The position numbers were made by a program, and so were the translations under genes. A stretch of DNA of 38,190 bases from an uncultured Bacteroidota bacterium. GTDB lineage: Bacteria; Bacteroidota; Bacteroidia; Flavobacteriales; Flavobacteriaceae. Positions within the stretch are counted from its first letter, which is position 1; the number at the start of each line of letters is the position of its first letter. The notes under the pieces are model-generated. The model was given only the letters and a program-made list of their open reading frames with translations. It had not been told where the DNA came from and did not search any database. Below are positions 9,949 to 38,190 of this stretch, in pieces. The stretch covers positions 1 through 38,190 of the forward strand of contig CABXGL010000014.1 in assembly GCA_902511755.1 (NCBI GenBank), read 5' to 3'.

Positions 9949-9949
9949 G

Positions 9950-10023
9950 TGATCGCGAGAGGATTCGAACCTCTGACCGTCTGCTTAGAAGGCAGATGCT
10001 CTATCCAGCTGAGCTACGCGACC
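9950..10023 (-). tRNA. tRNA-Arg, anticodon UCU
   Basis: A 74-nt cloverleaf on the minus strand. The acceptor arm GGTCGCG pairs with CGCGATC (one G-T wobble), with discriminator A. The anticodon stem TCTGC/GCAGA closes the loop CTTCTAA, giving anticodon TCT (reads AGA/AGG Arg codons, the commonest Arg codons in this window). The T-arm AGAGGTTCGAATCCTCT is canonical. The CCA end is not encoded (the next bases are CAA), so it is added enzymatically. No integrase or duplicated tRNA 3' end is seen nearby. Confidence 0.97.
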
Positions 10024-26575: not shown

Positions 26576-29500
26576 ATGAGAAAAATACTTTTTTCTTTGC
26601 TTTTTTTATTTTCCGGATTAGTTTTTTCTCAGACTAAGCCTATTGCATCAGACGTGTCTGCTGCTCATTTTAAGGATACAGATGGGCTAATCCACTTAGT
26701 TGGCTCAGATGCAGAATTTAATGCATTAACTTATACAATAGTTACTTTACCTTCACATGGAATATTAAAAGATCCTAATAATAGTGATGCTGTTGTTAGT
26801 GCGGGAGGTTCATTGTCAGGCAATTCGGTAACATTTGTTCCTCACTCTAATGAAAATCATAAATACATTTTTTCTGGAACTAATTCTTTCACATATAAGG
26901 TAACAGATTCTGATGGAGATAGTAATACTAAAACAGTAACTGTTAAAATATTTGATGAATATCTTAATCCACCTACATTGATTGATGTTGAAATTGATGG
27001 AGAAGCAGCGGGAGATAATTTTGGACGTGCTGTTTCTTTAAATGAAGATGGAACTATAATGGCAGTAGGTGCTCCATTTAATGATGCTGGCACAACAGAC
27101 TCTGATAAAGGAAGTGTAAGGGTCTTTCAGAAAATATCTGGTGGTGGCTGGTCAAAATTGGGAGACGATATTGATGGAACTACTGATCAAGATTATTTTG
27201 GATCAAGTATTTCTTTAAGTGGTGATGGTACAATACTAGCTATAGGAATTCCTTATAATGATACTGCAAATTCAAATGCAGGACAAGTTAAAGTATATCA
27301 ATATAATTCAGCAACTACTACTTGGGATATAATAAGTACAATAACTCCAACTATTGTTTCATCTGGTTCAAACAAAGCTGTCTCAGAGCAATTTGGAAAT
27401 GATGTTAGGCTTAGTAGTGATGGAAAAACTTTAGCTGTTAGCGATATTTGGTTTGATAGATCTGGCGGAACCAATTCAGGTAGAGTTGTAGTTTATCGTT
27501 ATGATGGTACTAACTGGAACTCCCTTGGAAATGAGACTGCTTTATATGGTGAAAGTGGAGATAATTTAAGTTGGGGACTTTCTTTGAGTGCTAATGGAAA
27601 TATTATGGCAGTTGGTGCTCATGATTATTCATCCAACAATAAAGGTCAAGTTAAAATATTTGAATATGATTCAGCCAATACAGAGTGGGATGTGAAAGCA
27701 ACCTTAGTAGGTGATAAATCTGCTGAAAAATTTGGAGCTGCTGTAGATTTAAGTAGTGATGGATTAATTGTTGCGGTTGGAGCGCCCTACCATAGAGTAT
27801 CAGGATCTGGAAGTGAATTTGTTGGAAAGGTTAGCATTTATAAGTGGGACGGTTCAACATATTCAGCACTTGGATCAGATCTAATAGGTTCAGATAAGTA
27901 TGATTATTTTGGAGCTCACTTATCATTAGATAATGAGGGAAATACTCTTGCTGTAATGGGACCAGGCCATGATGCTAATTCTGGAAGCAGTTCAGGAAGC
28001 TATTTAAATAAAGGTAGAGTTCGGGTTTTTAATTACGATTCAGCTTCTACTAGTTGGGTTCAATCTCCCACAAGTTATGATTTTGATGGAGAAGCAGATG
28101 AAGATCAAAGTACGGGAAGTAATAATGAGTCTAAGGGGCAAAGAGTGTTTTTGAGTGGGGATGGATCAGTATTAGCTATTGGTGCTGATGAAAATGATGG
28201 TAATGGAACAAATTCAGGCCATGTAAGGGCCTACAAATTATTTCAGCCTCAAATTATTCCCCTAGCTAACTCACAAGATGTATCTTTTCTATTATATGAG
28301 CAGGTAACTTCTGATGAAATTACCTTAAAAGGAACGGATAGTGATGGAGATGATGCAGATTTAGTGTATATAATTACTGAGCTTAACACTGCTAAGCTTT
28401 TTGAGGGTACTACAGAAATCACTTCTTCCGATATACCACATACTTTAACTGCAAACAAGGTAAAGTATAACAGTAATTCGGATGTATTGGTAAATGATTC
28501 ATTTAAGTTTATAGTTCATGACACTAAAGCTAGTAGTGTGCCCGCTACGGTAACTTTAACAATAATTCCCGATAATGATCCTCCTGTTGCAACTGGACAA
28601 TCTGTAACTAGTGATGAAGATGTTGCTAAGGATATTGATCTTGCTGGAACAGATGTAGATAACGCTGATACCAATTTAAATTTTTTAATTTATTCTTTAC
28701 CAGCTAATGGAACTTTAACAGATAAAAATAATGGTAATTCCGCTGTTACATTAGTGACTAAACATTCAGGAACAACAACTTCGGCTAATACTGATAAGCT
28801 AGAAGATAGTTCTCAAAATTTTACAAGTACAGTTGTTCCTGGAGATTTTCTTATTAACACAACTGATAACACATATGCTGATATAAAAGCAGTCGATAGT
28901 GATACAACCTTATCTCTTAGTGCTGATATTATGGCATCTGGAGAAGAATATACCATAAAAAGAGGAACCTCTTTAGTTGTTAGTTCAGGAACTGCAAAAG
29001 TAACTTATACTCCAAATTCTAATTATATAGGTTCAGATTCATTTAAATTTAAAGCAAGAGATAAAGGAGTAGCTGATGATGAATTAACTGATGTTGAAAA
29101 TAGTGTTGATGCAGCTACAGTATCTCTAACGGTAAACAATGTAGATAATGATCCTCCAGTTGCTGAAGATCAAACATTATCAACAAATGAAGAAACAGAG
29201 ACAGGATCAATTACATTAGTTGCAGTGGATCCTGATTTAGACGATACTCCTAAACCCGGAACTCCTGTCTATAAGGACACAAGTGGAAGTGCATATGGTG
29301 TTACTGTGGTTGGTAATTACGCTTATGTGGCGGATGGAGATTCAGGTTTAGCGATTATAGATGTTACTGATAAGGCAAACCCTGGAACACCAGTATATGA
29401 GGATACAAGCTTTGCTAATAATGTTGCTGTGGTTGGTAATTACGCTTATGTGCCGAATTTGGCGTCAGGTTTAGCGATTATAGATATTTCAGATAAGGCA

Positions 29501-32500
29501 AACCCTGGAACACCAGTATATGAGGATACAAGTAACTGTGCTGTTGGTGTTACTGTGGTAGGTAATTACGCTTATGTGGTGACTATGGAGTCAGGTTTAG
29601 CGATTATAGATATTTCAGATCCAACAAACCCTGGAACACCAGTCTATGAGGATACAACTGGAACTGCATATGATGTTACTGTGGTTGGTAATTATGCTTA
29701 TGTGGCGGATGGAGATTCAGGTTTAGCGATTATAGATATTTCAAATAAGGCAAACCCTGGAACACCAGTATATAAGGATTTAAGTAAAAGTGCTAGTGGT
29801 GTTACTGTGTTTGGTAATTACGCTTATGTGGCGGATTTCGAATCAGGTTTAGCGATTATAGATATTACAGATAAGTCAAACCTAGGAACACCAGTCTATG
29901 TGGATACACAGTGGTATGCACGTGATGTTACTGTGGTTGGTAATTACGCTTATGTGGCGGATTCAAGTTCAGGTTTAGCTATAATTCCATTAAATATGTC
30001 ATCTTTAACTTATACCATAGCATCTTTACCTACAAGTGGTAAATTAAAAGATGGAGGAACAGAAATTACAGCTGCTGGAGATATATCTGGTGCACTAACT
30101 TATTTGCCAAATGCAAATTTTACAGGTAATGATACTTTTAAGTTTACTGCAAAAGATGATGAATCCACTCCTGCTGTTAGTAATCAAGCTACAGTTACAA
30201 TTAATGTAGGTAATTTAAACGATGCACCAGTAGCAACAGCACAATCTGTTGATTTTCTAGAGGATACTGAAAATGAAATTACTCACGAAGGAACGGATCC
30301 TGATGGGGATACATTAACTTATATAATTATAACATTACCTTCTAAAGGAATTTTAAAAGATAATGGAACAGAAATAGTTACTGCAGATCTTCCTAAAACT
30401 TTATCTTCTGCCAAGGCTACTTATGTACCTCAAACTAATTATAATGGATCAGATTCTTATACTTTTAAAGTAAATGATGGTACTGTTGATAGTACACTTG
30501 CTGCTACTGTTGATATTACAGTTAAAGAGGTTAATGATCCTCCAATTGCTAATTCTCAAAGTTTAACAACGGATGAGGATACTGCTTTGACAATTAAGTT
30601 TACTGGAAGTGATATTGAAAATGATCCTTTAACTTATCTAATTAAAACTCTTCCAATAAATGGAAAACTAAAAGATGGTAATACTGAAATATTAGCTAGT
30701 GAATTACCTAAACTTTTGCCAGCTGACGAAATAACCTATATACCTAATGCTAATTATGTTGGAGATGATTCCTTTGATTTTTTGGTAAATGCTAATTATT
30801 TAAACTCTTTTACTAAGGCAAATAATTTAAAGTATATCACCCAAAATGGAGTGCCAGTAACTTATCAAAAACCCGAAGGAAAAACTTATTTTTTAATTCA
30901 AGAAAATACAGGGGTTTCAGGGTCACCTATAGATTGGACTACTGCTCGTACTTTAACTAATTCAATTAAGGGTGCTAAGATGTACGTTGTTTTGAATGCA
31001 ACAATGGAATTATTGGTTTGGAATGGTTTAAAATCTATGGGCTTGACTGGTCAAAATGGTCTTTATTATTGGCTTGGACTTTATCAAGATAAAACATCTC
31101 CTGACTATGCTGAGCCAGGATTAGAAAATCAAAATTGGGGTGGATGGACTTGGGTCGATGGAGTTACTCTAAAAGATAGAGGATATCATAATTGGTATAC
31201 AGCTGAGCCAAATAATGCTGGAGCAGAAGATTATGCTCAATTTGAATTTAGTAGTAATGGACCAGATGGTATTAAATGGAATGACATGTCTATTGGTAAT
31301 GCACAATCATGGCCTTTATTTGAATTCTCTATAAGTAGTACTACTCAAAGTGCTCCTGCTAAAATTTCTATTAATATTGGAGCAGTAAATGATCCTCCAG
31401 TTGCTAATGCACAGACCATAACTACAAGTGAAGATGTTACTACTCCAGCTGCAATAACTTTAACTGGAACAGATCCAGAGAGTCAGCCATTAACATATAT
31501 AGTTACTGCACTTCCAAATAATGGAACTTTAAAAGAGGGTGGAACCGCAATTGCAACTGTAGATTTACCAAAAACGTTAAGTGGAAATGCATTAACCTAT
31601 AGCCCAGAACCTGATTACAACGGAAAGGATGCTTTAACTTTTAAAGTTAATGATGGAGTTAATGAAAGCGGCTCTGCTATTGTATCAATTGTTGTTAACC
31701 CAGTTAATGACCCTCCCGAAGCGGATGATCAGACTGTAAATACCGACGAAGATGTTGCAGTGGATATTACCCATGTTGGAAGAGATAAGGATTTAGTAAA
31801 TATTTATACTAAACATACAAAGATGGGATCAGATATTAGTTTAGGAAATGGTTGGGGAGAATTTATAGAAATTTCTGCTGATGGTGAGACAATGGTAATT
31901 GGTGGTTGGACAAATAATAAAGTAAAAGTTTATGGTTGGGATGGTACTGCATGGAATCAATTGGGAAGTGATATAGATGGATCCAATTCTGGAGATAATT
32001 TTGGAGAATTTGTTTCCATATCTAGTGATGGTAAAAGAATTGCAGTAGGAGCTCATTTACATGATAGTAATAGAGGGGAAGTTCGAGCTTTTGATTGGGA
32101 TGGAACTAGTTGGACCCAAGTTGGATCTGCAATGGATGGTGGTTCTGGTGGAGATGAAAGTAGTTATAGAGGAGTTCATATTTCAGGAGATGGAAATGTA
32201 ATAGCAGCAGCAGCTTTTAAAAAAGGGTATGTTGATACATACAAATGGGATGGAACAAACTGGAATAAAACAGGAAATATTTCAGTTTTCGCAGGTGGTG
32301 GAGATTCACCAGGACAAGTTTCCTTATCGAATAATGGAAATAGATTAGCAATAGGTACTGGTGGTTATAGTGGAAATAAAGGCCAAGTAAAAATATTTGA
32401 TTGGGATGGCACGAATACTTGGAATCAATTTGCAGCAGTAGACGGCAAAAATGGTGGAGATAAATTTGGAGGCACCCTAAGTATTTCAAGGGATGGTAAA

Positions 32501-34444
32501 AAAGTTGCAGTTGGTGTAAATGGAGCAGGTTCAGCTAGAGTATATGATCTTTCTAGCTCAAATGTTAGTCAAGTTGGTTCAGACATCAATTATGGTTCAG
32601 GTTCAGCTTGGAGAGCTATTTCTCTTTCAGATAATGGAAAAAGGATAGCAATTCCAGTACTAGATCAAAAAATAGGAGTATTTGATTGGGATGGTACTAA
32701 ATGGAATCAACTTGGTGAGGATTTAACAAAACCTTCTAGCAGTCCAGGTCTTTGGGGAGAAAGTTTAGATATGTCTGGAGATGGAGAAACGTTGGTCGTA
32801 GGTGGTCATACTGGTTTTATAAGGGCGCATAAAATATTAAATTTAACTTATATTATTACTTCCTTACCTAGTAATGGTATTTTAAAAGAAGGTACTAAAA
32901 CCATTACTGCTTCTGACCTTCCATTTACTTTAAAAGATACAGATGCTACATATGTGCCTAATACTGGTTTTTCTGGTGATGATAAATATAATTTTAAAGT
33001 AAATGATGGAGAATTGGATAGTAACATTGCAACTGTAACTATAAAGATTAAAGAATTTGTATTACAGCTTCCTTTATCAAATTATAAAATAACACCTACT
33101 GAAACATGTAAAGGTTTTGCATATGGAATAATAGATATTGAAGTCACAGCAACGTCCTATAAAAAAACTCCTTCAGGAGCAGATATTCCTATTACCTACA
33201 ATATAGCTATTGAAGGTAAAGGTCAGCTTGCAACAATTGTATCTCCAGATAAAACAGCTCAAATTAAAGATTTAGCAGAAGGAACACATAAACTTGTTTT
33301 TACTGTAGTGGGACAACCAAAATATGAACAAAAAATAGATGTTCAAATTATAGGTACTGATCCTCCTGTTGCCTATGCTGTTGGTAAAATTGAAAACTGT
33401 GATGATGATGTTGATGGGGATGATGCGAACGGTAAGGTCAATTTTGACACATCATCAATTTTAGATAAGTTATTAAAGAATCCTTCTACAGGAGTTTTAC
33501 AAGATAAAAATTTATTTGATTTTGAATTTACTTACTATGATGAGGCTACATCTACTAATGTCACAAAAGCTACTCTTCCAAATCCTCTTTATTCTGCATC
33601 TCAAACATTATCAGTTAAATTTAAAAGTAAGATAAATGGAAAATGTGAAGCTAATCAAACTATAGATTTCGTTGTTAATACTCTTCCTAAAATTAAAAGA
33701 ATTGAAGATACCAAAAGTGTGTGTACTAATTTACCTCCAGTAACCATTGGAGTAACAAATGAAGACAATAGAAAATACACCTATACTTGGACAAGAAACG
33801 GAACTGATTTTCCTCCTAATATTACAGGAATTGATAGTAGTATTTTAATTGGTTTAGGTGGTGAATATATTGTAACTGCAACCACTATGGATGGAACTAA
33901 TTGTTCTAAGTCTATGAAAATTACAATGAAGGAATCTAGTATTGCTACTTTACTTAGAACAGATATAGTTATTAAAGATCTTTTAGCAGGTCCAAATAAC
34001 ACTATAACTGTTAAAACGGCAACTTTAGGAATAGGTGATTATGAATATGCTTTAGATGATCAAATAGGTCCTTATCAAGATGAGCCTGTATTTAATAAAG
34101 TAAGACCTGGAAAACATACTGTTTATGTTCGAGATAAAAATGGATGTGGAGTAGCAAACATGGATGTTTGGGTTATTGGATATAAGAAATTCTTTACTCC
34201 TAATAGTGATGGTTACACTGATACATGGAATGTTATAGGTATTACTAAAGATTATCAAGCTAGATCTAAAATTTATATTTTTGATAGATTTGGAAAACTT
34301 TTAAAAGAATTAGACCCACTTACACCAGGATGGGATGGAACCTTTAATGGTAAACCAATGCCTCAAACAGATTACTGGTTTAAGGTAATTCTGGAAGATG
34401 GTAGAATGTTCAAAGGACATTTTAGTCTTATTAGAGCTTGGTAA
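26576..34444 (+). CDS. Giant T9SS type B secreted adhesin with nested beta-propeller and lectin modules
   Basis: A 2622-residue surface protein. Order: signal peptide (1-19); cadherin/Big_9-like domain (about 20-130); seven-bladed FG-GAP-like propeller (about 135-555); seven further Big_9-like domains separated by DPPVA linkers (DNDPPVA, LNDAPVA, VNDPPIA, VNDPPEA). Four of these hold insertions: a small module (about 728-801), six LVIVD repeats (895-1138), a C-type-lectin-like domain (about 1436-1583) and a second seven-bladed propeller (about 1741-2089). Then Ig-like domains with cysteines (about 2160-2520) and a type B sorting domain (2536-2622) with FFTPNSDGYTDTW and IYIFDRFGKLL. T9SS would carry it through the outer membrane, the PorP/SprF protein downstream being a likely partner. 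Role in adhesion is inferred. Confidence 0.93.
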   Translation: MRKILFSLLFLFSGLVFSQTKPIASDVSAAHFKDTDGLIHLVGSDAEFNALTYTIVTLPSHGILKDPNNSDAVVSAGGSLSGNSVTFVPHSNENHKYIFSGTNSFTYKVTDSDGDSNTKTVTVKIFDEYLNPPTLIDVEIDGEAAGDNFGRAVSLNEDGTIMAVGAPFNDAGTTDSDKGSVRVFQKISGGGWSKLGDDIDGTTDQDYFGSSISLSGDGTILAIGIPYNDTANSNAGQVKVYQYNSATTTWDIISTITPTIVSSGSNKAVSEQFGNDVRLSSDGKTLAVSDIWFDRSGGTNSGRVVVYRYDGTNWNSLGNETALYGESGDNLSWGLSLSANGNIMAVGAHDYSSNNKGQVKIFEYDSANTEWDVKATLVGDKSAEKFGAAVDLSSDGLIVAVGAPYHRVSGSGSEFVGKVSIYKWDGSTYSALGSDLIGSDKYDYFGAHLSLDNEGNTLAVMGPGHDANSGSSSGSYLNKGRVRVFNYDSASTSWVQSPTSYDFDGEADEDQSTGSNNESKGQRVFLSGDGSVLAIGADENDGNGTNSGHVRAYKLFQPQIIPLANSQDVSFLLYEQVTSDEITLKGTDSDGDDADLVYIITELNTAKLFEGTTEITSSDIPHTLTANKVKYNSNSDVLVNDSFKFIVHDTKASSVPATVTLTIIPDNDPPVATGQSVTSDEDVAKDIDLAGTDVDNADTNLNFLIYSLPANGTLTDKNNGNSAVTLVTKHSGTTTSANTDKLEDSSQNFTSTVVPGDFLINTTDNTYADIKAVDSDTTLSLSADIMASGEEYTIKRGTSLVVSSGTAKVTYTPNSNYIGSDSFKFKARDKGVADDELTDVENSVDAATVSLTVNNVDNDPPVAEDQTLSTNEETETGSITLVAVDPDLDDTPKPGTPVYKDTSGSAYGVTVVGNYAYVADGDSGLAIIDVTDKANPGTPVYEDTSFANNVAVVGNYAYVPNLASGLAIIDISDKANPGTPVYEDTSNCAVGVTVVGNYAYVVTMESGLAIIDISDPTNPGTPVYEDTTGTAYDVTVVGNYAYVADGDSGLAIIDISNKANPGTPVYKDLSKSASGVTVFGNYAYVADFESGLAIIDITDKSNLGTPVYVDTQWYARDVTVVGNYAYVADSSSGLAIIPLNMSSLTYTIASLPTSGKLKDGGTEITAAGDISGALTYLPNANFTGNDTFKFTAKDDESTPAVSNQATVTINVGNLNDAPVATAQSVDFLEDTENEITHEGTDPDGDTLTYIIITLPSKGILKDNGTEIVTADLPKTLSSAKATYVPQTNYNGSDSYTFKVNDGTVDSTLAATVDITVKEVNDPPIANSQSLTTDEDTALTIKFTGSDIENDPLTYLIKTLPINGKLKDGNTEILASELPKLLPADEITYIPNANYVGDDSFDFLVNANYLNSFTKANNLKYITQNGVPVTYQKPEGKTYFLIQENTGVSGSPIDWTTARTLTNSIKGAKMYVVLNATMELLVWNGLKSMGLTGQNGLYYWLGLYQDKTSPDYAEPGLENQNWGGWTWVDGVTLKDRGYHNWYTAEPNNAGAEDYAQFEFSSNGPDGIKWNDMSIGNAQSWPLFEFSISSTTQSAPAKISINIGAVNDPPVANAQTITTSEDVTTPAAITLTGTDPESQPLTYIVTALPNNGTLKEGGTAIATVDLPKTLSGNALTYSPEPDYNGKDALTFKVNDGVNESGSAIVSIVVNPVNDPPEADDQTVNTDEDVAVDITHVGRDKDLVNIYTKHTKMGSDISLGNGWGEFIEISADGETMVIGGWTNNKVKVYGWDGTAWNQLGSDIDGSNSGDNFGEFVSISSDGKRIAVGAHLHDSNRGEVRAFDWDGTSWTQVGSAMDGGSGGDESSYRGVHISGDGNVIAAAAFKKGYVDTYKWDGTNWNKTGNISVFAGGGDSPGQVSLSNNGNRLAIGTGGYSGNKGQVKIFDWDGTNTWNQFAAVDGKNGGDKFGGTLSISRDGKKVAVGVNGAGSARVYDLSSSNVSQVGSDINYGSGSAWRAISLSDNGKRIAIPVLDQKIGVFDWDGTKWNQLGEDLTKPSSSPGLWGESLDMSGDGETLVVGGHTGFIRAHKILNLTYIITSLPSNGILKEGTKTITASDLPFTLKDTDATYVPNTGFSGDDKYNFKVNDGELDSNIATVTIKIKEFVLQLPLSNYKITPTETCKGFAYGIIDIEVTATSYKKTPSGADIPITYNIAIEGKGQLATIVSPDKTAQIKDLAEGTHKLVFTVVGQPKYEQKIDVQIIGTDPPVAYAVGKIENCDDDVDGDDANGKVNFDTSSILDKLLKNPSTGVLQDKNLFDFEFTYYDEATSTNVTKATLPNPLYSASQTLSVKFKSKINGKCEANQTIDFVVNTLPKIKRIEDTKSVCTNLPPVTIGVTNEDNRKYTYTWTRNGTDFPPNITGIDSSILIGLGGEYIVTATTMDGTNCSKSMKITMKESSIATLLRTDIVIKDLLAGPNNTITVKTATLGIGDYEYALDDQIGPYQDEPVFNKVRPGKHTVYVRDKNGCGVANMDVWVIGYKKFFTPNSDGYTDTWNVIGITKDYQARSKIYIFDRFGKLLKELDPLTPGWDGTFNGKPMPQTDYWFKVILEDGRMFKGHFSLIRAW
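26978..28240 (+). other. Coding region for FG-GAP-like beta-propeller 1 (seven blades)
   Basis: Seven repeats of about 55-65 residues with the pattern G-x-FG-x-x-(V/I)SLSxDG-x-x-(L/M)AVG ... G-x-V-x-(V/I)-(Y/F) ... W-x-x-LG, resembling the FG-GAP_2 type. This propeller lies between two Big_9-like domains and is not nested in one. Confidence 0.75.
28757..28977 (+). other. Coding region for small beta module inserted in a Big_9-like domain
   Basis: About 74 residues, including KLEDSSQNFTSTVVPGDFL and an ending GEEYTIKRG, interrupt a host domain between TLTDKNNGNSAVT and SSGTAKVTYTPNSN. Other copies of the domain run straight through this point. The module type has no certain name. Confidence 0.55.
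29258..29989 (+). repeat. Six tandem LVIVD-type repeats (about 126 bp each) within the adhesin gene
   Basis: Each unit encodes 41-42 residues: GTPVYxDTS...VTVVGNYAYVADxxSGLAIIDISDKANP. The bases are very similar between copies, e.g. GGTAATTACGCTTATGTG and TCAGGTTTAGCGATTATAGA recur nearly unchanged. The repeat type forms beta-propeller blades. Units are bounded by VAVDPDLDDTPK before and SSLTYTIASLP after, both parts of one Big_9-like host domain. Confidence 0.9.
30881..31330 (+). other. Coding region for a C-type-lectin-like domain inserted in a Big_9-like domain
   Basis: Residues about 1436-1583 show the C-type-lectin-like order: WTTARTLTNSIKGAKMYVV, GLYYWLGLYQD (the WIGL core), GGWTWVDG, then EPN (1544-1546) and WND (1568-1570). 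EPN and WND are the Ca2+/sugar-binding motifs of mannose-type lectins. The usual disulfide cysteines are absent. The domain sits between SFDFLVNA and SAPAKISINIG of the host. Confidence 0.85.
31797..32842 (+). other. Coding region for FG-GAP-like beta-propeller 2 (seven blades), nested
   Basis: Seven blades of about 45-55 residues with ISxDGxxxAVG and DWDGTxWxQxG repeats, shorter than in propeller 1. It enters the host Big_9-like domain after THVGRDKDL and leaves before LTYIITSLPSNG, the same loop used by the LVIVD propeller. Confidence 0.8.
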
Positions 34445-34480: not shown

Positions 34481-35110
34481 ATGGATAACTTTTTAAATTT
34501 TTGTGATTTAAATAATTTTGAATATTGGTTAGTAATTCGTCTTTATTTTGCTGCAACTCTTCCAATATTGTTAGCTATATATTATTTTATTAATAAGAAA
34601 GTTTCTTATTCTACAGCCTATACATTAATGTGTGCTTTTTTTATTGTTGCATTAGGTTGGGAAATATGGCTAACATATGGATTATCTGGAGGTCTACCAG
34701 TAGATCAAAGAAGAAGTGCAATGTTAACTTGTGCCATTCCGGTAAATATAAATTGGCTTTTGAACTCACTCGCTGATGTATTAATTGTTTGGATTGGTTT
34801 ATTTTTTGTTAAAAATTATTATAGGAACAAGATATCCCCCTTTATAAAATGGAAATGGGGTGCATTTTTTATTTTATTAACGTGGTTTATTATTCAGAAT
34901 GTTTATATAGAAGCTTTCTTTTATCATCTTCAATTGGGCTCAAGTGGAGATTTATCATGGGCTCCTTTAATGCCTTTAGGATCATGGTATAATCCAACAA
35001 TTTTTACAATAGGAGGTAATCCTATTACTTTGCAATCTCAATCTAGTTGGATTATAATGACTCCAATAATTTATTTTTTATCTATTTACTTCAATAAAAT
35101 AAAAACATAA
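34481..35110 (+). CDS. Uncharacterised multi-pass membrane protein
   Basis: A 209-residue inner-membrane-type protein with about five hydrophobic spans (about 18-37, 45-62, 90-110, 126-146, 188-204). I recognise no family. Aromatic-rich features stand out, such as LGWEIWLTYGLSGGLPVDQRR (about 64-84, at a loop) and NVYIEAFFYHLQLG (about 145-158), with polar residues inside otherwise hydrophobic segments. No cleavable signal or catalytic motif is clear. It lies 36 bases after the giant adhesin stop and 104 bases before the PorP/SprF gene, in the same direction, so it is probably part of the adhesin locus or carried along with it. Composition looks native. It could be a general metabolic membrane protein and unrelated to secretion. 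Confidence 0.8.
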   Translation: MDNFLNFCDLNNFEYWLVIRLYFAATLPILLAIYYFINKKVSYSTAYTLMCAFFIVALGWEIWLTYGLSGGLPVDQRRSAMLTCAIPVNINWLLNSLADVLIVWIGLFFVKNYYRNKISPFIKWKWGAFFILLTWFIIQNVYIEAFFYHLQLGSSGDLSWAPLMPLGSWYNPTIFTIGGNPITLQSQSSWIIMTPIIYFLSIYFNKIKT

Positions 35111-35214: not shown

Positions 35215-36198
35215 ATGAAAAAATTTTTCATATTATTTTTATTTATTGTAAAAATTTCTTTTTCTCAGGATCCTGTATTTACTCAGTTTTATAATATTCC
35301 TGAGTCTTTAAATCCTGCTTTTGCTGGTGGAGGTGGTGGCTCTGAATTAGGAATATTAAATAGAACCCAATGGCCTGGATTAGATTATTCATTAAATAGT
35401 CAATTTTTTTATTTTGATAATTATATCGACACCTATAATAGTGGAATAGAATTAACAATTTTAAATCAGATAGAAACGGTTACTAGATATAATTTTACTC
35501 AAATAAATTTAAATTATTCATATCAATTACAATTAAATAATGAATGGTTTTTTTATCCAGCAATTTCTGTTGGTTTTGCCAATAAAGACTATGCCTTTAA
35601 TAATTTGGTTTTGGAAGATCAGATTTTAATATCTTCTGGAATTATAAATTTTGATTCAACAGATCCATTTCTAAATAAATTGAATGAAAGTAAAAGTTTT
35701 TTAGATATAGGAGCAGGATTTCTCATATTTAATGAAAATATATGGTTTGGCGGTAGTTTTAAACATTTAAATACTCCTAACATTTCTTTTGAACCTGATG
35801 GTGAAGTATTATTAGACCCTTTTATTTCAATTCATGGAGGTTATAAATTACCATTAAGTCAACGATTTTCTAATTCAGATTTAGCTTTACATTTTAATTT
35901 TAATTATCTCAGACAAAATGACTACGATAGATTTGATCTTGGTTCTAGATTTGAGTATAATGATTTTAGATTTGGAGTTTTTGGAACTTTTGCACCAACT
36001 TCTGTTCAAAGTGATTCTCATAAGCTTACTTCTTTAAATTTTATTACAAATTTTGATTACAGACAATTTAGTTTTGGATATTCATATGATTATAATATGA
36101 GTACTTTGGCTAATACCAAGGGCGTATTTGAGATTTCTGTATCTTATAAGTTTGACTCTTTATTTAATGATAACCCAATTCCTTGTGGATGTAAGTAG
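35215..36198 (+). CDS. PorP/SprF family type IX secretion outer-membrane protein
   Basis: A 327-residue outer-membrane beta-barrel of the PorP/SprF family. After the signal peptide (about 1-18, ending SFSQ) comes the family signature DPVFTQFYNIPESLNPAFAG with a GGGGG insertion, then LGILNRTQWPGL and many alternating-pattern strands. The C-terminus ends NPIPCGC. In Flavobacterium johnsoniae SprF is needed to export and attach SprB, and such genes commonly sit beside adhesins with a type B sorting domain. Here it lies between two giant adhesin genes; the downstream start codon directly abuts its stop (no spacer), pointing to coupled translation with the SprB-repeat protein, its likely main client. 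Confidence 0.93.
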   Translation: MKKFFILFLFIVKISFSQDPVFTQFYNIPESLNPAFAGGGGGSELGILNRTQWPGLDYSLNSQFFYFDNYIDTYNSGIELTILNQIETVTRYNFTQINLNYSYQLQLNNEWFFYPAISVGFANKDYAFNNLVLEDQILISSGIINFDSTDPFLNKLNESKSFLDIGAGFLIFNENIWFGGSFKHLNTPNISFEPDGEVLLDPFISIHGGYKLPLSQRFSNSDLALHFNFNYLRQNDYDRFDLGSRFEYNDFRFGVFGTFAPTSVQSDSHKLTSLNFITNFDYRQFSFGYSYDYNMSTLANTKGVFEISVSYKFDSLFNDNPIPCGCK

Positions 36199-38190
36199 AT
36201 GAAAATATTTTCTCAACATATAAAATTAATTCTCTTTCTATTTATAGTACAAACTAATTTTATTTATAGTCAGACATATAATCCGCAAACTCAAAATAGA
36301 AGTTGGAACTCGAATTCTGATATTAACACTGTTTTTTTAAAATCCAATGGAGTTAATATAACTATTACACCAAACTTGAAAATGATTCAGTTTGTTGATT
36401 CTAATGGAGCTACTTATGGATACAATGGTACTAATGGTATACCAACAGACTGGACATATGAAATTTCTGATTCAGCTGCTGATGTGCCAGCAGATACAAC
36501 TGTCTCTGGTGATAAGAAGAGTATAACATTCACTGCAGATCCAGACAGAGACGTAATTATTTATTTAAAAGTATCTGATACTAATGGAGTCGTTGCTAAT
36601 TTATCTAGAGTTCAATTAACACTCTACGTAAGAGGAAAGTTAACTGTAGCTACTGCTAAATGGAATGCTTGTGAGCAAGCATATATACTTTCAGTAAATG
36701 AACAAGTTGTTAATAGCGCTAAAGTTTGTTCACCCTACAGAATAATAGTATATAAGGTTCTTAATGGTGCAGTTGATACAAATACTGTAATATATGATTC
36801 CAATAGTGACAATAATCATGATCCAAATAATAATAGATTTTCTTTAAGCATTGGAGTTGGAAGTTATGCAGCTATTATTACAAATAGTTGTAATGAAACA
36901 GTTAATAGTGCAGGGGATGGATATTATTACTTTTCTATAACTGATGCATATAGTTTTGGTGCTACAGCATTATTTAGTGGGTTTGAGTGTATAACAGATA
37001 GTGTTGGAAAAGCAATAATAAAGGTTGAGGGAGCAGCAAAGCCTATTACTTGGACATTAAAAGATTCAAATGGTACAGAGGTTGTTAATAATTCAAGTTC
37101 TAATCAATTTAGTCTTGATGGTTACAATGATAATTTTGATATTCAGAATTTCACAATTACGATACCAAATCTTGCTCAAGGTACTTATACATTTACTTTC
37201 ACTGATGGGAATAGCTGTACTGAAGAGATAACGGTTAAGATTGAGAAACCAGCAGAAGCTCTTGAAGTTAGTGTACTAGAAAACAATTCTCCATTAAGTT
37301 GTAATGGTGATTCAGATGGAAAATTTACATTTATAGCCAGTGGGGGTTGGACTGAGCCATGGAGTGGAAATTATATCAATCCAAATGGTTGGGGAAATCC
37401 ATATATTTTTACTTTAACTAAAGGAGGTGTAACATATAGCTCCGGAGATGTTTTGAGTCACTTTGTTAACGGAACTCAAACAGGATATAAAACCTCTTTT
37501 ACTGGATTATCTGCAGGAACTTACACATTAACTATTAGAGAAAATATAGCAACAAACCCTTTTGGTTCAAATACAATTTATTATTGTGAAAAACAATTTG
37601 CACAAACTTTCACAATAACAGAGCCTGCACAATTAACTTCATCAGGATCTATTACAAATATTGCTTGTAATGGTAATAATACTGGATCAATAGATTTAAG
37701 TGTTAGTGGAGGTACTACAAATTACACTTATGCATGGACTAAGACAGGAGATGCTTCCTTTAATGAAACTACTCAAGATATAAGTGGCTTGTCACCTGGA
37801 GAATATAAAGTTACAGTTACAGATGCTAAGAATTGTACAACTACTAATAGTTTTACAATCACTCAACCCGCTGAATTAACAATTGCTGATGCGGCTTTAC
37901 CAACCGCTATTGCCTGTTTTGGAGATAATGGACAAATTAAGGTGAACATAACACAGGCTTCTGTAGCCAATTACAAATATGATTTAATCCAAGGGGGTAG
38001 TGTTGTTCAAACTATTACTAACAGTAATTTGAATCATACTTTTAGTGCACCAGCAGGAACATATAAAGTGAGAGTAACTGACGCTAATGGTTGTTTTAAA
38101 GAAACAAATAACATCACATTAACTCAACCAAGTGCTGGTTTATCAATTTCAAATGATAGTCTTATTAATATTACTTGTAATGGTGATGAT
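36199..38190 (+). CDS. Large SprB-repeat surface adhesin, 3' truncated by the window
   Basis: An open reading frame of at least 664 codons, still open at the right edge. It begins MKIFSQHIKLILFLFIVQTN with a signal peptide ending at about 24 (IYSQ). The first ~350 residues contain Ig-like stretches with paired cysteines (KWNACEQAYIL, KVCSPYRIIV, FECITDSVG). From about residue 353 on there are SprB-type repeats with the pattern (L/I)xCNGxxxGxIxxxxxGG ... GLSxGxYxxTVTDxxxCxxTxxFTITQPAxLT. In gliding flavobacteria such repeat proteins are filamentous adhesins moved along the cell surface and exported by T9SS. It starts directly at the PorP/SprF stop, so secretion partner and client are cotranslated. 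The C-terminal sorting domain lies outside the window. Confidence 0.92.
   Translation, partial: MKIFSQHIKLILFLFIVQTNFIYSQTYNPQTQNRSWNSNSDINTVFLKSNGVNITITPNLKMIQFVDSNGATYGYNGTNGIPTDWTYEISDSAADVPADTTVSGDKKSITFTADPDRDVIIYLKVSDTNGVVANLSRVQLTLYVRGKLTVATAKWNACEQAYILSVNEQVVNSAKVCSPYRIIVYKVLNGAVDTNTVIYDSNSDNNHDPNNNRFSLSIGVGSYAAIITNSCNETVNSAGDGYYYFSITDAYSFGATALFSGFECITDSVGKAIIKVEGAAKPITWTLKDSNGTEVVNNSSSNQFSLDGYNDNFDIQNFTITIPNLAQGTYTFTFTDGNSCTEEITVKIEKPAEALEVSVLENNSPLSCNGDSDGKFTFIASGGWTEPWSGNYINPNGWGNPYIFTLTKGGVTYSSGDVLSHFVNGTQTGYKTSFTGLSAGTYTLTIRENIATNPFGSNTIYYCEKQFAQTFTITEPAQLTSSGSITNIACNGNNTGSIDLSVSGGTTNYTYAWTKTGDASFNETTQDISGLSPGEYKVTVTDAKNCTTTNSFTITQPAELTIADAALPTAIACFGDNGQIKVNITQASVANYKYDLIQGGSVVQTITNSNLNHTFSAPAGTYKVRVTDANGCFKETNNITLTQPSAGLSISNDSLINITCNGDD
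37255..38190 (+). repeat. SprB-type tandem repeats in the second adhesin
   Basis: At least three full repeats and the start of a fourth: CNGDSDGKF... (from about 37255), CNGNNTGSI... (from about 37630), CFGDNGQI... (from about 37876) and CNGDD at the edge. Units are about 80-125 codons and are divergent at the DNA level, unlike the LVIVD repeats in the first adhesin. Confidence 0.85.

What the first reader, a model, noticed from the sequence alone, without database searches (positions are those of the whole stretch)
28577..33055. Nested domain architecture: functional modules inserted inside loops of tandem Big_9/cadherin-like domains
Comparing the host domains by eye shows four cases where a repeated Ig-like/cadherin-like domain is split by a foreign module and then resumes in register. 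The intact reference is the domain at about 30217-30525 (GTDPDGDTLTYIIITLPSKG ... ATYVPQTNYNG ... FKVNDG). Split copies carry a small module, an LVIVD propeller, a lectin-like domain and an FG-GAP-like propeller. This is a plug-in arrangement rather than beads on a string. It suggests the loops of the repeat act as sockets for different binding heads along a fibre. I know of no described example with this set, but could not search.
Basis: partly seen in the sequence, partly recalled or inferred. Interest (0 to 1): 0.88.

Follow-up and report, generated by a model that had tools for sequence, protein, structure and literature searches.

The report
Adhesin with swappable loop-inserted domains
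A large secreted protein of a flavobacterium carries different domains, probably binding heads, plugged into the loops of its repeated Ig-like links, and close relatives show the same sockets empty, filled or filled with something else, so evolution appears to swap the heads without breaking the rod.

Summary
ORF 26576-34444 (2622 aa) is a type IX-secreted (type B CTD) protein with eight Big_9/tandem-95 domains, D0-D7. Four are split and resume in register: D2 (66-aa module), D3 (six-repeat LVIVD propeller), D5 (C-type-lectin-like domain) and D7 (FG-GAP-type propeller). A profile built only from other genera finds complementary halves in D3 and D7; D2 and D5 rest mainly on relatives.

Genus relatives give the best evidence. 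Of copies covering each site, D3 is continuous in 5 of 5 others. D7 is empty in 1 of 9, although that copy's tandem neighbour is filled and nearly identical downstream of the junction. D2 is filled in 4, empty in 1 and holds an unrelated ~130-aa module in 2. D6, empty here, holds a fifth module in 4 of 9.

The sites fall in the BC, DE or FG loops. AlphaFold2/Foldseek supports both propellers, but packing of the halves was not measured and binding is untested.

The layout is not new in kind: RTX adhesins project ligand-binding domains from split Ig-like domains. New here are the T9SS setting, propellers as inserts, and exchange of modules at the same sockets. The small module recurs in 12 viral protein contexts.

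The parts
26576..34444 (+). whole gene: secreted 2622-aa protein, signal-like N-terminus (by eye) to T9SS type B CTD
26636..26965 (+). D0, intact Big_9/tandem-95 domain (res 21-130)
26978..28243 (+). first FG-GAP propeller (res 135-556), linear bead between D0 and D1
28244..28573 (+). D1, intact host domain (res 557-666)
28574..28765 (+). D2, N-terminal part (strands A-D)
28766..28963 (+). 66-aa phage-type module in the D-E loop of D2 (res 731-796)
   Evidence: absent in G010a, replaced in G017 and G011
28964..29146 (+). D2, C-terminal part (strands E-G)
29147..29251 (+). D3, N-terminal part (strands A-B)
29252..30004 (+). six-repeat LVIVD propeller in the B-C loop of D3 (res 893-1143)
   Evidence: absent in 5 of 5 other D3 copies
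30005..30217 (+). D3, C-terminal part (strands C-G)
30218..30532 (+). D4, intact reference domain (res 1215-1319)
30533..30793 (+). D5, N-terminal part (strands A-F)
30794..31333 (+). C-type-lectin-like module in the F-G loop of D5 (res 1407-1586), EPN and WND motifs
31334..31387 (+). D5, strand G after the lectin
31388..31705 (+). D6, intact here; its F-G loop carries a ~190-aa module in 4 of 9 family copies
31706..31795 (+). D7, N-terminal part (strands A-B)
31796..32842 (+). FG-GAP-type propeller, seven blades by my strand count, in the B-C loop of D7 (res 1741-2089)
   Evidence: empty in G015a
32843..33058 (+). D7, C-terminal part (strands C-G)
34175..34435 (+). T9SS type B sorting domain (res 2534-2620)
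35215..36198 (+). PorP/SprF-like outer-membrane protein gene, likely anchor partner
   Evidence: PF11751, E 8e-50; anchoring role from PMC9143113, abstract

Best explanation
This is a T9SS-exported surface adhesin of SprB-like logic. A rod of Ig-like tandem-95 domains is anchored through its type B C-terminal domain and probably a PorP/SprF-like partner. Several rod domains act as 'split' carriers: the chain leaves the Ig fold at one of three loops (B-C, D-E, F-G), folds a self-contained module and returns to finish the Ig fold, so the module stands off the rod axis. Modules are gained, lost and exchanged at these same sockets between close species and between tandem gene copies, probably by recombination among the many similar host domains. 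SHOWN: split register (D3, D7; D5 by its displaced strand), empty and alternatively filled sockets in relatives, propeller folds in models. INFERRED: packing of each pair of halves into one Ig fold, the recombination route, surface display, and a binding role for the lectin and propellers.
For: Split register with an HMM from other genera. In tandem-95 proteins of other genera (21 proteins with hits in loci L232-L251) the same HMM finds 18 gaps of 35-700 aa, in 9 proteins; 0 of 18 are complementary splits and 9 of 18 have complete domain ends on both sides. A split search over 828 ORFs of 116 loci gave 18 split calls, every one in this family; some are one gene fetched twice or one site called by both HMMs. 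Socket states in the family copies that cover each site: D3 empty in 5 of 5 other copies; D7 filled in 8 of 9; D2 small/alternative/empty in 4/2/1 of 7; D6 filled in 4 of 9; D5 filled in 9 of 9. G015 tandem copies: last 1632 nt 99.4% identical, identity stopping at the D7 module junction, one copy empty and one filled; their C-termini pair in the tree at 100/100. Module folds: 9 of the top 10 Foldseek hits of the D5-D7 model are propeller proteins with TM to target 0.71-0.80; for the LVIVD model the best TM among the 50 listed hits is 0.71, a Campylobacter propeller at rank 46. Lectin: DC-SIGN-type C-type lectins at E 4.9e-5, and a homologue passes Pfam Lectin_C. Strand map of D4 in the model puts the sites in BC, DE and FG loops. 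Second gene downstream is PorP/SprF-like, third has an SprB repeat.
Against: No coordinates were available and the DALI-like library was not on the machine, so packing of the halves was not measured. The models rest on 10-11 sequences; the lectin (pLDDT about 40-62) and small module (41-63) are poorly modelled, and the higher-ranked LVIVD hits have TM below 0.6. D2 of the window is not a complementary split for either HMM. The lectin alone is below Pfam's cut-off in the window. The ~190-aa D6 module starts with a G-strand-like stretch and the outside HMM calls it linear in G003, G010a and G017; its nested status rests on comparison with empty copies. The first lectin-bearing domain of G017 is also called linear. 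No binding, surface or motility data exist. In three family copies the ORF is broken inside the D7 propeller.
Confidence: 0.78

Rival explanations
1. Beads on a string: modules are linear neighbours and the host halves are separate short or degenerate repeats.
For: Linear modules do occur: in this protein (first FG-GAP propeller) and at 9 of 18 gaps in other genera. The outside HMM calls the D6 module of three relatives linear.
Against: Halves are complementary in HMM register in D3 and D7; close relatives carry the same domain uninterrupted, e.g. D3 of G016 and D7 of G015a.
Confidence: 0.05
2. The inserts are chance or assembly products (chimeric contigs of a MAG), not inherited architecture.
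For: The window is from a 68%-complete assembly. The LVIVD insert was seen in this genome alone and is richer in G+C than the D3 halves (0.398 against 0.33-0.37; GC3 0.231 against 0.057-0.086).
Against: Small module, lectin and D7 propeller recur in separately assembled relatives. The LVIVD junction keeps one open frame with complementary halves. The insert itself is coherent, with six repeats.
Confidence: 0.05
3. The modules are structural, not ligand-binding: they stiffen or space the rod, or serve T9SS passage, and exchange is neutral.
For: No ligand is known to me for the LVIVD or FG-GAP_2 modules here. Module sets vary among close species without obvious pattern. The small module sits in phage proteins of several kinds, which fits a structural role for that one.
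Against: Published RTX adhesins use the same layout for ligand binding (passages). The lectin keeps EPN and WND motifs (recalled as sugar/Ca2+ motifs) and related lectins sit inside a second Ig-like host fold in 13 of 17 lectin-bearing loci listed.
Confidence: 0.2

Closest known systems
Split Ig-like domain plus ligand-binding domain units of RTX adhesins (Marinomonas MpIBP, Vibrio FrhA, Aeromonas AhLap)
   Same: Ig-like domain discontinuous in sequence; a ligand-binding module leaves it and projects from the rod; module termini lie together (PMC12077191, PMC10865825, passages read).
   Different: Those are T1SS proteins with RTX C-termini; AhLap has three ligand-binding domains near its C-terminal end. 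Here: T9SS type B protein, tandem-95 hosts, propellers among the inserts, six module/site combinations across close relatives, and empty/filled/exchanged states at the same site.
SprB-type gliding adhesins of Bacteroidota
   Same: T9SS type B CTD and a PorP/SprF-like gene nearby; SprB is bound to SprF (abstract of PMC9143113).
   Different: This protein is built of tandem-95 domains with inserted modules; no gliding data.
Tandem-95/Big_9 surface proteins of other Bacteroidota
   Same: Same host domain family.
   Different: 0 of 18 gaps in such proteins from other genera are complementary splits.
Flavobacterial type B proteins with a C-type-lectin-like module inside an Ig_7-like domain
   Same: Related lectin module nested in an Ig-like fold, 13 loci, some of them other proteins of the same genus.
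   Different: Other host fold; the site is between strands B and C, not F and G. Pfam matched only the preceding, intact Ig_7 domain in the two examples scanned; the split domain and its strands are read by eye.

Membership tests
RTX adhesins with split domains | Ig-like domain split in sequence by a module | tested here: met
   empty relatives
RTX adhesins with split domains | C-terminal RTX repeats and type I secretion signal | tested here: not met
   C-terminus is a T9SS type B CTD; Pfam at E 1 lists no RTX repeat. So it works like one and is not a member.
RTX adhesins with split domains | module binds a ligand | not testable with these tools
   no binding data
T9SS type B surface proteins (SprB-like) | type B C-terminal sorting domain | tested here: met
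   TIGR04131 E 2.1e-34
T9SS type B surface proteins (SprB-like) | PorP/SprF-like partner gene nearby | tested here: met
   PF11751 E 8e-50 at 35215-36198
T9SS type B surface proteins (SprB-like) | cell-surface display and role in gliding | not testable with these tools
   -
Big_9 / tandem-95 repeat proteins | tandem domains above family cut-offs | tested here: met
   Big_9 199.3 bits (cut-off 23.6), NF012211 185.6 bits (cut-off 90)
C-type lectin domain | match to Lectin_C above cut-off | tested here: inconclusive
   window module 15.7 bits against 22.6; homologue L127 28 bits; phmmer to CD209 chains E 4.9e-5
LVIVD propeller | LVIVD repeats forming a propeller | tested here: met
   six stretches, 188 bits; propeller match TM 0.71, the best of 50 listed

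The most novel reading that the evidence does not exclude
The tandem-95 rod is an evolvable display scaffold: foreign modules are accepted only in the loops at one pole of the Ig fold (B-C, D-E, F-G, the loops that antibodies and FnIII binders use), and heads are exchanged there by recombination between tandem copies. The exchange pool reaches into phages: the 66-aa module is a promiscuous plug-in shared with many unrelated phage proteins, carried in frame inside its hosts.
Probability: 0.4. Interest if true: 0.78.

Novelty: new variant of a known kind. Interest (0 to 1): 0.6.

Why it matters
Split Ig-like carriers have been described in T1SS adhesins of single species. Here close species and two tandem gene copies show the same socket empty, filled and refilled, which makes the evolution of adhesin specificity directly testable: which loops accept inserts, what the junction needs, and whether the change of head changes the surface bound. 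It also warns that binding domains in Bacteroidota surface proteins can be missed when domain finders expect contiguous repeats.

Tried and rejected
Linear arrangement: rejected from HMM register and empty relatives. Search for LVIVD donors in the genus: 3 of 22 genomes match and only the window's own strongly. Viral LVIVD hits (4 loci; 2 used) were misplaced by the aligner and dropped from the structure alignment (then). Alignments A2, A4 and A6 were made and not used: rows were misplaced in A2 and A4, and A5 was preferred to A6. A5 (10 rows) and A3 (11 rows) were folded. Target-site duplications at the LVIVD junction: none seen by eye. Plasmid collection: six records with short matches in the first 25 kb, the listed ones at a tRNA-Arg gene; none for the D5-lectin unit as protein. 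Paper searches aimed at nested inserts in T9SS or Ig-like proteins listed no description of this layout in Bacteroidota, but the longer lists were capped (12 of 5,049, 8 of 193) and I saw titles and starts of abstracts only. One search found 9 papers that mention tandem-95 repeats, on phage inserts, found none.

Full report
What it is. The finding lies in one ORF, 26576-34444 (+), 2622 aa, in a small, 68%-complete genome assembly of 1.41 Mb. Record titles of relatives call them Flavobacteriaceae, Flavobacteriales or Cryomorphaceae MAGs; a marine home is my inference. Pfam and NCBIfam show Big_9/tandem-95 domains, LVIVD repeats, FG-GAP_2 repeats, and a T9SS type B sorting domain at the end. The second gene downstream is PorP/SprF-like and the third carries an SprB repeat. 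Type B proteins were found bound to their PorP-like proteins (abstract of PMC9143113), so a surface-anchored protein is the likely reading.

The splits. The host domains run D0 (res 21-130), D1 (557-666), D2 (667-857), D3 (858-1214), D4 (1215-1319), D5 (1320-1604), D6 (1605-1710), D7 (1711-2161). With a family HMM of 102 columns, D3 is matched at columns 1-31 and, after 252 aa, 31-102; D7 at 1-32 and, after 346 aa, 32-102. Two unlike modules thus break the domain at the same place. An HMM made only from 89 intact domains of other genera (picked with the family HMM) again gives complementary halves for D3 and D7, and shows D5 ending at column 80 of 91 before the lectin. Neither HMM gives a complementary split for D2 of the window; there the case rests on relatives. 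In 21 tandem-95 proteins of other genera the outside HMM finds 18 gaps of 35-700 aa; none is a complementary split and 9 have complete domain ends on both sides. Nesting is thus not the rule for this domain family. A split search over 828 ORFs of 116 loci gave 18 calls, every one in this gene family, with some repeats of one gene or site. Shuffled sequences gave 5 hits in 50 runs at iE 0.01, so the weakest half (D7 N-half, iE 7e-4 with the outside HMM) rests also on the relatives.

Relatives with the socket empty, filled or refilled. Genus relatives were found and fetched. Reading the copies that cover each site: D3 holds LVIVD only in the window; 5 of 5 other copies (G016, G012, G015a, G010a, G017) run straight through, e.g. 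DPDPNDT-NLTYTI in G016, whose protein is 90-91% identical to this one on both sides of the insert. D7 holds the propeller in 8 of 9 copies (in three of them the ORF is broken within it) and is empty in G015a. D2 holds the 66-aa module in 4 of 7 copies (window, G016, G012, G015a), an unrelated ~130-aa module at the same loop in 2 (G017, G011), and nothing in G010a. D6, intact here, holds a ~190-aa module in 4 of 9 (G003, G017, G010a, G015b), with Cys residues on both sides of the insert that are kept in the empty G015a copy; the outside HMM calls this module linear in the three copies tested, because it begins with a G-strand-like stretch. D5 holds the lectin in 9 of 9; G010a, G010b and G017 have two lectin-bearing domains in a row. 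The LVIVD search over the genus matched 3 of 22 genomes, strongly only the window's own. Its coding DNA is richer in G+C than the D3 halves (0.398 against 0.33-0.37; GC3 0.231 against 0.057-0.086), in line with a recent gain, though other parts of the gene also vary (for example D1 GC3 0.236).

A recent event caught in one genome. G015 carries two copies in tandem. Their last 1632 nt are 99.4% identical, and the near-identity stops at the D7 module junction; upstream blocks are 82-84% identical, one D7 being empty and the other filled. The C-terminal tree pairs the two at 100/100 with almost no branch length. This fits exchange or conversion between tandem copies with an end point at the socket. 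The direction is not proven; since 8 of 9 copies are filled, loss in G015a is the simpler reading.

Where the sockets are. In the model of D2-D4 the strands of D4 are A 553-561, B 567-574, C 582-585, D 592-600, E 614-619, F 625-634, G 644-650 (model numbering; 549 is residue 1215). LVIVD and the D7 propeller sit in the B-C loop, the two D2 modules in D-E, the lectin and the D6 module in F-G. Of 17 lectin-bearing loci listed (those numbered L074 and up), 13 have a related lectin between strands B and C of a second Ig-like fold, read by eye as Ig_7 (Pfam matched only the preceding, intact Ig_7 domain in the two scanned); several are other proteins of the same genus. The other four (L106, L103, L095, L135) have a different context. 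So 7 of 7 module/host/loop combinations use B-C, D-E or F-G. From general knowledge of FnIII and Ig folds these loops lie at one pole. If six loops were equally likely the chance would be 1 in 128, but the idea arose after looking, the sample is small, and the D6 module is the least certain member.

Structure. Two AlphaFold2 jobs gave mean pLDDT 77.9 (D5-D7, 11 rows) and 74.8 (D2-D4, 10 rows). Foldseek's top 10 for the first are propeller proteins, 9 with TM to target 0.71-0.80 and one 0.30. For the second, many of the 50 listed are propellers, the best by TM a Campylobacter protein at rank 46 (0.71); the higher ranks are below 0.6 and include cadherins. Most of D3 and D7 has pLDDT of about 70-93, the lectin about 40-62 and the small module 41-63. 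In D3 and D7 each half alone lacks strands that the other supplies.

The modules as heads. The lectin is C-type-like: phmmer to CD209 chains E 4.9e-5, a homologue above the Pfam cut-off, with EPN and WND motifs (their sugar/Ca2+ role is recalled). For the propellers I know of no ligand. The 66-aa module has relatives in 57 viral contigs in 12 protein contexts by flank clustering, among them a phage minor tail protein in which the Pfam match stops at profile position 76 of 108, just before the module, a virion structural protein family and, weakly, a tail-fibre family. Among relatives of two such phage proteins its HMM hits 74 of 74 and 80 of 80, though those were fetched with queries that contain it.

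Known or new. RTX adhesins project ligand-binding domains from split Ig-like domains (passages of PMC12077191 and PMC10865825). The layout here works the same way, but this protein is not an RTX adhesin: its C-terminus is a T9SS type B domain and Pfam lists no RTX repeats. I found no description of such nested modules in T9SS proteins in the library searched (capped listings only). I file it as a new variant of a known kind.

Noticed in passing
28766-28963; L142-L198; L056 2213-6976: The 66-aa module is a promiscuous in-frame module: 57 viral contigs, 12 protein contexts by flank clustering, conserved TLSLSADIM core; two more copies near the N-terminus of another T9SS protein of the own genome. 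In L320 and L321 an ~80-aa insert sits inside the module itself.
   Followed up: partly
L045/L064, L048, L049/L066: In three family copies from two MAGs the ORF is broken inside the D7 FG-GAP propeller (in one also, apparently, near D5); sequencing indels or real frame breaks, not decided.
   Followed up: no
L074, L076, L078, L082-L085, L089-L091, L096, L126, L127: 13 loci carry a C-type-lectin-like module between strands B and C of an Ig_7-like domain (read by eye) in other flavobacterial proteins, some of the same genus.
   Followed up: partly
L054 1946-3145 (-), own genome C21: Short 400-aa ORF with a signal-like start, one tandem-95 domain and the lectin inside its F-G loop: a minimal socket-plus-head protein.
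   Followed up: partly
26978-28243: A second FG-GAP propeller in the same protein stands as a plain linear bead between whole domains; the two propeller types are 29-33% identical when compared across with G016.
   Followed up: partly
34481-35110: 209-aa protein between the adhesin and the PorP/SprF gene with no Pfam match at E 1.
   Followed up: no
36199-38190: Next gene, running off the window, carries an SprB repeat.
   Followed up: no
9949-10023: tRNA-Arg (tct) gene on the minus strand; it explains the short matches to Acinetobacter plasmids.
   Followed up: yes
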